Assembly (NCBI GenBank): GCA_027490955.1
Contig: JAIXXB010000027.1
Span: forward strand, 1 to 64,000
Source: Rhodobacter sp.
GTDB taxonomy: Bacteria; Pseudomonadota; Alphaproteobacteria; Rhodobacterales; Rhodobacteraceae
Length of the DNA: 64,000 nucleotides
Direction: 5' to 3'
Part shown: positions 16,153 to 50,672 of the stretch, one piece after another
How the letters are laid out: the number at the start of each line of letters is the position of its first letter
How positions within the stretch are numbered: the stretch's first letter is position 1
Notes under the pieces: model-generated
The model's input: only the letters and a program-made list of their open reading frames with translations
The model's database searches: none
Told to the model about the DNA's origin: nothing
Translations under genes and position numbers: made by a program

Positions 16153-16491
16153 ATGAAACGTCCATATGCACGCCCCGCAGCCCTGACTGCAGCCCTGACC
16201 GCAGCCCTGACCGCAGCCCTGCTGGTAAGCGGCTGTAATCAATACACCTTTAACCGCGAGTCGGGCGATATGGATTCGGGCAGCTTTGGCAATGCCACGA
16301 TGGAAAACACGTTGCTGGCCACGGGCCAGCTTCAACCGCAGATGAGTTATGACAAATACGATCCCGCCCGCGCAGGCACTTTGCTGAACGGCAAATATGC
16401 CGCAGGCATTTGGCAGGGCTACATCGCAGGTGCCTCGACCCAGCATATCGGCACGGCCAGCACCAGCGCCGAAAGCAGCAGCGAAAACTAA
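16153..16491 (+). CDS. Tad-locus lipoprotein (CpaD-position), with tandem-repeat signal peptide
   Basis: 112 residues. A lipoprotein signal ends in LLVSGC, and the hydrophobic core is built from a 12-bp tandem repeat giving ALTA ALTA ALTA. The mature part of about 80 residues is Ser/Asn-rich and ends in ESSSEN; no domain recognised. It sits between secretin and cpaE, where other loci have cpaD, which suggests a pilotin-like outer-membrane lipoprotein, but no CpaD similarity is evident. Starts 4 bases after cpaC. Confidence 0.75.
   Translation: MKRPYARPAALTAALTAALTAALLVSGCNQYTFNRESGDMDSGSFGNATMENTLLATGQLQPQMSYDKYDPARAGTLLNGKYAAGIWQGYIAGASTQHIGTASTSAESSSEN
16177..16221 (+). repeat. 12-bp tandem repeat inside a signal peptide
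   Basis: Units at 16177-16188, 16189-16200, 16201-16212 and a partial at 16213-16221 (GCAGCCCTGACY). The unit is a multiple of three, so copy changes would lengthen or shorten the signal peptide by four residues without breaking the frame. Confidence 0.95.
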
Positions 16492-40836: not shown

Positions 40837-41076
40837 ATGTTCACCATCGAGCACGATTTTGACGCCAGCATCATCACCCTGATCGACGAAGGCGCGCCCG
40901 AAAACGCCCTGCAAGAAGACATCACGATTGAGGCGTTCGAAGATTGCGTGGTGCTGCGCCAGTTGGACGAATTGACCGAAACCGAAATGACCATCACCCT
41001 ATCGCTGCGCCAAGTGCAAGATTTGGCCGCGGCGCTGGATTTGCCAGAGGGAAGCTATCGGATTGAACGGAAATAG
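40837..41076 (+). CDS. Small conserved hypothetical protein
   Basis: 79 residues from ATG 40837, with ribosome-binding site AAAGGAGG. Strongly acidic: MFTIEHDFDASIITLIDEGA and DITIEAFEDCVVLRQLDELTETEMTITL. A short beta-rich fold is likely, with a helical end (LRQVQDLAAALDLPEGSYRIERK). Looks like a protein seen in many Rhodobacteraceae genomes with no assigned function. Confidence 0.8.
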   Translation: MFTIEHDFDASIITLIDEGAPENALQEDITIEAFEDCVVLRQLDELTETEMTITLSLRQVQDLAAALDLPEGSYRIERK

Positions 41077-41112
41077 GGGGGCGTTGGGGGCGGCGCGCCT
41101 GCCCCCGCCCTC

Positions 41113-41459
41113 TCAGGGCAACCAAAACACCTGATCCTTACTCGCCGCCCCCCGCACCAACACCCGCCGCGATTTGGCAACGCCCAGCCCATCTGCCAAC
41201 GCCTTTGCCACGGCCTATGCCAACGCCTATGCCAAAACCTGTGCCACGGCCGCAGTGGCGCGGCCAATTTCGGGGGCAGTGGTGGCTTTATCCTAGAACA
41301 CCCCCTTCCGCCATTCCACCGCATTGGTGCGCGCAGGCGGGGTGACATGCGGGGGCACGCGCGGGGGACGCGCGGTGGGACTTGGGCGGCCATTTCTGCC
41401 CCAAGCGCGGCCATGTCGGCCAAAATGCCCTTGGTCTGTTTTTGGTTCTGCTTCTTCAT
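41113..41459 (-). pseudogene. Decayed DUF167 (YggU/UPF0235) gene
   Basis: Read on the minus strand from ATG 41459: MKKQNQKQTKGILADMAALG and on to about 41375, then a shift into another frame gives PPHVTPPARTNAVEWRKGVF, TAG (41293-41295), DKATTAPEIGRATAAVAQ, then AVAKALADGLGVAKSR, VLVRGAASKDQVFWLP and TGA (41113-41115). The PxARxNAV, APEIGRATAAV, LGVAKSRxVLVRGAxSxD pattern is that of DUF167 proteins, which are small and often conserved in Rhodobacterales. Besides the frameshift there are three in-frame TAG codons (41293, 41227, 41215). Total length 347 bases is not a multiple of three. A 12-bp repeat array lies inside. Inactivation looks old and complete. Confidence 0.75.
41194..41253. repeat. 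12-bp tandem repeat, five units, inside the DUF167 pseudogene
   Basis: Units TGCCAACGCCTT, TGCCACGGCCTA, TGCCAACGCCTA, TGCCAAAACCTG and TGCCACGGCCGC (41194-41253). On the minus strand each unit reads like A-L-A-x; in two units the x codon is TAG. The array expands the helix around LAxALG of DUF167. Confidence 0.9.
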
Positions 41460-41676
41460 CTCACGATTTGGCCCCGCCGTTTCGCCTTGAACACGGGGGC
41501 ATGTTGTGCCCCTCACCCATGTGCGGCGTGTCGGGACAGATGCCATACGCATGCCAGACACATGCCAGACGCAAACCATACACCGCCCATCCGCCCCGCC
41601 GCGTTAACCTATTTCCCCCCATCCACCCTTGACCCCGCCGCCAATCTTGGGTGCTATGCAGCCAAAGGAGAGCATG

Positions 41677-49512: not shown

Positions 49513-50672
49513 TCCCCCGCTGCGGTGCTGTCTTGCACCACACCGCCACCGACGTTTAGCAAAATCTCTTGTCCTGTGTTTGGCCCTATGTTTGACCCTA
49601 TGTTTGGCCCTGTCTCTGGCCGCGCGATTTGCAAGGTGCGGATCGCCACGGAAAAGGAAGATGCCCCGTCTGGCCCCATCCAGCCGATGGCCCCGCAATA
49701 GGCTGCGCGGGGGGCAGTTTCGACCTGCCGAATGATCTGCATGGCGCGGATTTTCGGCGCGCCTGTGATCGAGCCGCAGGGGAAAAGCGCAGGCATGACC
49801 GAAGCCATCGAAGGCGGTTGCAGCAAATCACCCACCACGCGGCTGACCATTTGATGCAAGGTGGCGTAGGTTTCGATGCCAAACAGGGTCGGCACCTTTA
49901 CCGAACCCACGCGCGAAATGCGGGCAATATCGTTGCGCAGCAGATCCACAATCATCAGGTTTTCGGCCTGACCCTTGGCCGAGGCACGCAGCGCTTCGGC
50001 CAGTTCGGCATCCAGCACAGGGTCGCTATCGCGCGGCGCTGTGCCCTTCATCGGGCGCGCCTCGATCCGCCCCGCGGCAGAGGTGCGCAAAAACAACTCT
50101 GGGCTGCGCGAGGCCAAAATCGGCCCCTGCCCCAGATCGACAAAGGCCCCATGCCCAACCTTTTGCCGCAAGGTCATAGCGCCGTAAAGGCCCAGCGGCG
50201 TGCCCGACATCAGCCGCGCGGCCAAGGGAAAGGTCAGGTTGATCTGGTAGCAATCGCCTGCCGCTATGTATGCCATTACAGTATCAAAGGCGCGGGTATA
50301 TGCGTCAAAGCTGATCAATGGTGCGGCCGCGGTGACGGCCACGTCAGATGCGCCATCGCGCGCCTGCGCCAAGGCGGGCGCGGCATCGCTGGGCGCGTCA
50401 TAAATGCCAAAGGCCAGCAAGGGCCGCCCACCCAAATCGCCTGCCATATCAAATAAATGCGGCTCAAAGGCAAAGCCTGCCTCATAGGCCAGATAGCCTG
50501 CCACCCATGCGCCGTCCGCGCGCGCGCGGTCCAGATGCGCCAAGGCTGCGGGAACATCGGCCAAGTCATAGGCCATGACGCGCCGCAAGGGGCGATCAAA
50601 CAGCGCTGGCGCGCCATAAGGTCCATCTTCCAGTAAAATCACCGCAGCGCCCCTTTTGGGCGCATATACCAC
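49449..50672 (-). CDS. pabB: Aminodeoxychorismate synthase component I
   Basis: 407 residues. Chorismate-binding domain: AAGDCYQINLTFPLAARL, RSPELFLRTS, MKGTAPR, RNDIARISRVGSVKVP, and FPCGSITGAPKIRAM, the conserved active-site sequences of the TrpE/PabB family. Makes 4-amino-4-deoxychorismate from chorismate and glutamine-derived ammonia. Unusually, a 12-bp tandem repeat adds GPNIGSNIGPNTG near residue 370. Divergent from the APC permease across 258 bp. Confidence 0.92.
   Translation of the reverse strand: MVYAPKRGAAVILLEDGPYGAPALFDRPLRRVMAYDLADVPAALAHLDRARADGAWVAGYLAYEAGFAFEPHLFDMAGDLGGRPLLAFGIYDAPSDAAPALAQARDGASDVAVTAAAPLISFDAYTRAFDTVMAYIAAGDCYQINLTFPLAARLMSGTPLGLYGAMTLRQKVGHGAFVDLGQGPILASRSPELFLRTSAAGRIEARPMKGTAPRDSDPVLDAELAEALRASAKGQAENLMIVDLLRNDIARISRVGSVKVPTLFGIETYATLHQMVSRVVGDLLQPPSMASVMPALFPCGSITGAPKIRAMQIIRQVETAPRAAYCGAIGWMGPDGASSFSVAIRTLQIARPETGPNIGSNIGPNTGQEILLNVGGGVVQDSTAAGEWEEALWKARYFSTLPQMASG
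49577..49612. repeat. 12-bp tandem repeat inside pabB
   Basis: Three units, TGTTTGGCCCTA (49577-49588), TGTTTGACCCTA (49589-49600) and TGTTTGGCCCTG (49601-49612). On the minus strand they encode P-N-I-G/S-type tetrapeptides near the C-terminus of PabB. Confidence 0.9.

What the first reader, a model, noticed from the sequence alone, without database searches (positions are those of the whole stretch)
41113..41459. A DUF167 (YggU) gene frozen in mid-decay, with three in-frame amber codons and an expanded 12-bp repeat
Seen in sequence: one frameshift (length 347, not divisible by three) and TAG codons at 41293, 41227 and 41215, all in one reading frame that continues to a normal-looking C-terminus ending VLVRGAASKDQVFWLP. 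Two of the TAG codons sit at the last codon of 12-bp repeat units. The five-unit array (41194-41253) stretches the helix before LGVAKS. The frameshift seems to fall in a second, CCN-CGC-GTG-like repeat (about 41335-41375). A repeat-driven loss of a conserved small gene is the simplest reading; suppression of TAG is the exciting but less likely one.
Basis: partly seen in the sequence, partly recalled or inferred. Interest (0 to 1): 0.65.

Follow-up and report, generated by a model that had tools for sequence, protein, structure and literature searches.

The report
Broken DUF167 gene with expanded repeats
A small gene of unknown function (DUF167/YggU) in a relative of Rhodobacter is a dead copy, broken by a frameshift, three stop codons and two expanded 12-base repeats; this is an ordinary case of bacterial gene loss.

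Summary
The minus strand at 41113-41459 carries a DUF167 (PF02594, YggU) gene with a frameshift, TAG codons at 41293-41295, 41227-41229 and 41215-41217, and two 12-bp-type tandem arrays. Against the open copy in relative G013, the window copy has 36 extra bases (three units) at 41194-41253 and 35 extra bases inside the array at 41337-41381; the latter is the frameshift. Two TAGs lie inside extra units, next to a unit that reads CAG; the third lies outside both arrays. The place is orthologous: 38 of 80 public loci fetched with the neighbouring gene have DUF167 there, with 0 internal stops. TAG suppression is not supported: TAG ends 19 of 55 long window ORFs, and none of 37 typed tRNAs has a CUA anticodon. 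The gene is often absent: 109 of 246 family genomes show no match, and two of the three closest relatives have other DNA at this place. Best reading: a unitary pseudogene, lost under relaxed selection, with repeat slippage supplying some lesions. The kind is ordinary. More curious is a clade-specific dispersed element of 11-bp direct repeats just upstream (41527-41582).

The parts
41113..41459 (-). DUF167 (PF02594, YggU/COG1872) pseudogene; first ATG at 41459, stop TGA 41113-41115
41337..41381 (-). Second 12-bp-type tandem array; holds 35 bp not present in G013, which cause the frameshift
41293..41295 (-). In-frame TAG outside both arrays (a sense codon in G013)
41194..41253 (-). Five-unit 12-bp array, 36 bp (three units) longer than in G013; adds 12 codons before ALADGLGVAKS
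41227..41229 (-). In-frame TAG inside an extra repeat unit (the neighbouring unit of the same array reads CAG)
41215..41217 (-). In-frame TAG inside the next extra repeat unit
40840..41076 (+). Intact convergent small gene, the syntenic anchor; ends in TAG; G000/G013 omega 0.031

Best explanation
It is a unitary pseudogene: the orthologous DUF167 gene of this genome, dead through a frameshift and three premature TAG codons, with 12 further codons inserted. Shown: orthology by position and sequence, the size and place of both insertions, the three stops, no other DUF167 match in the held genome, and other DNA at this place in two of the three closest relatives. Inferred: selection on DUF167 was relaxed in this clade; a CAG-to-TAG change plus replication slippage (copying of 12-bp units, one unit being a base short) produced most of the lesions; no functional DUF167 protein is made.
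For: Alignment with G013 shows +36 bp and +35 bp exactly at the two arrays. The ten near relatives aligned share G013's spacing at both places, so these are gains in the window genome. 38 of 80 public loci have DUF167 in the same place, each with 0 internal stops. The own genome has 0 PF02594 matches at E<=0.001. dN between G000 and G013 is 0.215 (omega 0.49) for DUF167 against 0.011 (omega 0.031) for the adjacent gene, at dS 0.44 and 0.36. Of 25 columns at least 90% conserved in 37 open copies, G000 alone departs at four, G013 alone at two, both at two. In G009 and G011 other DNA stands in place of DUF167 with no significant remnant. 109 of 246 family genomes have no match.
Against: Omega is not decisive: open DUF167 pairs at dS about 0.35-0.45 range from 0.095 (L062/L064) to 0.66 (L067/L101), and the median over 666 open pairs is 0.36. 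The stretch after the last TAG (41116-41214) has no stop and is well preserved. The reads behind the assembly could not be checked, so an error at a single site is not excluded, though three stops and two length changes by error are very unlikely. No RNA or protein data.
Confidence: 0.94

Rival explanations
1. The TAG codons are read through by a suppressor tRNA or a recoded TAG, so the protein is still made.
For: All three premature stops are TAG and share one frame. The tRNA set recovered is incomplete (no tRNA-Ile among those typed), so a missed tRNA is possible.
Against: TAG ends 19 of 55 long window ORFs (the shadow ORF 41055-41579 is one of the 19), and the adjacent small gene. 37 of 38 tRNA matches were typed and none has a CUA anticodon. 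A frameshift remains in any case. Two of the TAGs lie in copies of one repeat unit, which explains why they are the same codon.
Confidence: 0.01
2. A phase-variable (contingency) gene: gain and loss of units in the arrays switches the frame on and off.
For: The frameshift lies in a tandem array.
Against: One TAG lies outside both arrays (41293), so changes in unit number alone cannot give an open frame. The ten near relatives and G013 have no such extra units.
Confidence: 0.02
3. A sequencing or assembly artefact.
For: The reads could not be examined; the assembly is a 42-contig draft.
Against: Five separate lesions plus substitutions spread over the gene, whereas the adjacent gene is clean with omega 0.031.
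Confidence: 0.02
4. The 134-aa open frame from the ATG at 41459 (DUF167 N-terminus continuing out of frame to 41055) is a new functional protein.
For: The frame is open.
Against: It exists only because of the frameshift. The matching frame in G005 carries stops. No Pfam match up to E=10. It overlaps the 3' end of the convergent gene.
Confidence: 0.02

Closest known systems
DUF167 / YggU / COG1872 (PF02594); solved chain 1n91 (and 1yh5), which I recall as E. coli YggU
   Same: Same family by profile and by synteny; the G005 protein matches the 1n91 chain at E=2.6e-7 (the deposit calls it 'orf, hypothetical protein')
   Different: Interrupted by three stops and a frameshift, with 12 inserted codons; cannot give a whole domain
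Unitary bacterial pseudogenes formed by decay under relaxed selection (general knowledge, recalled)
   Same: Premature stops, length changes, raised dN, loss or replacement in sister lineages
   Different: Both length changes fall in short 12-bp tandem arrays; otherwise nothing unusual

Membership tests
DUF167 (PF02594) | Sequence match to the family profile | tested here: inconclusive
   28.2 bits, E=2.1e-6 with X at stops, below the curated cut-off of 30.9; 0 matches at E<=0.001 in the own-genome search. But two pieces match a Rhodobacteraceae profile built here, 27.7 and 24.6 bits, tblastn with the G013 protein gives E=1.9e-14, and position agrees, so descent from DUF167 is secure
DUF167 (PF02594) | One open frame over the whole domain | tested here: not met
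   Frameshift and three TAGs
Unitary pseudogene | Orthologous open gene at the same place in relatives | tested here: met
   38 of 80 public loci
Unitary pseudogene | Disabling lesions | tested here: met
   Three stops, +35 bp frameshift
Unitary pseudogene | No functional paralogue in the genome | tested here: met
   0 matches to PF02594 at E<=0.001 in a 95.4% complete genome
Unitary pseudogene | No protein made | not testable with these tools
   Needs RNA-seq and proteomics
TAG recoding or suppression | tRNA with CUA anticodon; TAG not an ordinary stop | tested here: not met
   the tRNA set is incomplete

The most novel reading that the evidence does not exclude
The frameshift in the repeat array has made a new 134-aa protein (start 41459, with an arginine- and tryptophan-rich second part read out of the DUF167 frame) that the cell now uses: a gene born by slippage inside a dying one.
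Probability: 0.02. Interest if true: 0.5.

Novelty: new member of a known kind. Interest (0 to 1): 0.15.

Why it matters
Little for biology at large. It suggests that DUF167 is dispensable in this Cypionkella/Pseudorhodobacter-like clade: broken here, replaced in two sister species, open but altered in the third. It is also a clear example of short-repeat slippage supplying a length change and doubling a stop codon in a decaying gene. It does not bear on genetic-code questions.

Tried and rejected
TAG suppression was tested by stop usage and by tRNA anticodons and rejected. General repeat instability of this genome was tested by TRF density: window 12.5, other G000 DNA 9.3, G005 7.9, G011 13.3 distinct arrays per 100 kb, no clear excess overall; arrays of period 12 or 24 are 4 of 8 in the window (two of them the arrays in this gene) against 2 of 13, 1 of 11 and 2 of 16, so a mild local excess of that period is not excluded. 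Phase variation was rejected because one TAG lies outside the arrays. dN/dS was kept as weak support only. A DNA search of 41100-41470 in the 15 genomes held of the genus matched only G000 itself, G013 and 42 bases in G014, so no second genome with the same lesions was found. Paper searches, listings and abstract starts only: DUF167 or YggU, 86 papers, 15 listed, neither term in any of the 15 titles or abstracts; Rhodobacteraceae/Pseudorhodobacter/intergenic-repeat terms, 47 papers, 10 listed, none naming the dispersed element in what I saw; pseudogene plus repeat expansion plus slippage, one unrelated chloroplast paper. No paper was opened.

Full report
What is there. On the minus strand the frame that ends VLVRGAASKDQVFWLP and TGA (41113-41115) contains TAG at 41293-41295, 41227-41229 and 41215-41217; the N-terminal piece from the ATG at 41459 lies in a different frame. 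TRF finds a 12-bp array at 41194-41251 and another at 41337-41381. The read-through frame with X at stops matches PF02594 (DUF167) at E=2.1e-6, 28.2 bits, below the curated cut-off of 30.9. The G013 protein finds it by tblastn at E=1.9e-14, 58% identity over 76 aligned positions. The own genome (2.96 Mb, 42 contigs, 95.4% complete) has no PF02594 match at E<=0.001.

Where it comes from. The window lies in an unnamed member of a Rhodobacteraceae genus. The convergent small gene at 40840-41076 anchors the locus. Of these 80, 38 have DUF167 behind it on the opposite strand, within about 0.5 kb, and in all 38 the matched stretch has 0 internal stops; 42 have no match in the DNA held, some of which is short. 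Among the 14 other genomes of the genus, 10 have PF02594 and 4 (G007, G008, G009, G011) do not; these four are 84, 99, 85 and 83% complete. In the family, 137 of 246 genomes at least 95% complete have it, the own genome being among the 109 misses.

The lesions. Aligned to G013, the window copy has 36 extra bases at the first array and 35 in the second. Ten near relatives share G013's spacing at both places, so both are gains in the window genome. 35 = 3 x 12 - 1; the coding-strand units read CGCGTCCCCCG, CGCGTGCCCCCG, CATGTCACCCCG, so the shift comes from a unit of 11 (sequence; the parsing is mine). In the first array the coding-strand units run GCA CAG GTT TTG, GCA TAG GCG TTG, GCA TAG GCC GTG, GCA AAG GCG TTG. 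A CAG-to-TAG change followed by copying of the unit explains two of the three TAGs (inference). The TAG at 41293 is outside both arrays and stands where G013 has a sense codon. The 12 inserted codons alone need not kill the protein; the frameshift and the stops do.

Selection. Between G000 and G013 the aligned DUF167 codons give dS 0.44, dN 0.22, omega 0.49 over 78 codons (0.47 over 74 codons); the adjacent gene gives dS 0.36, dN 0.011, omega 0.031. Open DUF167 pairs: omega 0.095 for L062/L064 at dS 0.37, median 0.24 among ten near relatives, median 0.36 over 666 pairs; pairs at dS about 0.35-0.45 reach 0.66. So the value is high for this clade but not unique. Of 25 columns at least 90% conserved in 37 open copies, G000 alone departs at four, G013 alone at two, both at two. 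G013 also lacks the start codon used by its relatives: a TAG stands there, and an inner ATG preceded by GGGAAGG could serve (my reading). G009 and G011 have other DNA at this place, with no profile hit and no significant tblastn remnant. Thus all four members of the clade show loss or change; relaxed constraint in their ancestor is the simplest account (inference).

Suppression. 19 of 55 long, largely non-overlapping window ORFs end in TAG, the shadow ORF 41055-41579 among them. The covariance-model search found 38 tRNA matches; ARAGORN typed 37, none with anticodon CUA; one 55-base partial match was not typed. Suppression would not cure the frameshift. I reject it.

Chance and repeats. Shuffled windows hold 0.73 arrays of TRF score 49 or more on average, and no shuffle of 40 held more than 2, but real DNA of these genomes holds 7.9-13.3 per 100 kb. 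Period 12 or 24 makes up 4 of 8 arrays in the window against 2 of 13, 1 of 11 and 2 of 16 in the other samples, a mild local excess on small numbers. The arrays are real but not a sign of an unusual genome.

Side finding. At 41527-41582, between the dead gene and the next plus-strand gene (coding from about 41677; it looks like a nitroreductase, recalled, not tested), lies a dispersed element: a leader TGTCGGGAC(A/G)G and four 11-bp direct repeats like ATGCCATACGC. BLAST finds 19 copies in the genome at E<=0.01. A 22-base pattern with up to 3 mismatches finds 14 in G000, 12 in G009, 17 in G011, 16 in G013, 1 each in G014 and G017, and 0 in the other 35 of 41 genomes; the reversed control finds 0 in all 41. 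12 of the 19 G000 copies have at least 1 kb of matching flank beside a copy in one or more of the three sister species, with 30 of 55 sister rows fetched (my count). At one position of the first repeat G000 has C in all 14 pattern matches, whereas 34 of 45 matches in the three others have A although the pattern asked for C (my count); at the 12 shared sites the sister copies have A, but these were found with an A-type query. Such change in concert suggests a shared binding factor or copying among sites; I did not test which.

Verdict. An ordinary unitary pseudogene with neat slippage scars. Interest is low.

Noticed in passing
window 41527-41582: Dispersed intergenic element: leader TGTCGGGACRG plus four 11-bp direct repeats (ATGCCATACGC); 19 BLAST copies in the genome; 12-17 pattern matches in each of three sister species, 0-1 in each of 37 other genomes. 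Many sites are shared between species, but the repeat sequence differs by species in concert (C in G000, mostly A in G009/G011/G013). Some copies lie just before a start codon, others next to the end of an ORF.
   Followed up: partly
L051 2313-4290 (G009): In place of DUF167 there are about 2 kb that seem to hold two similar minus-strand small ORFs, lipoprotein-like by eye.
   Followed up: no
L034 from about 1754 (G011): In place of DUF167 there is about 1.3 kb of other DNA that I did not identify.
   Followed up: no
L052 3500-3529 (G013): The otherwise open DUF167 of G013 lacks the start codon used by its relatives (TAG stands there) and may start at an inner ATG.
   Followed up: partly
window 16175-16221 and 49573-49611: Two further 12-bp tandem arrays (3.9 and 3.2 copies), the first outside the 55 ORFs of 150 aa or more that I kept, the second inside a 407-aa ORF.
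   Followed up: partly
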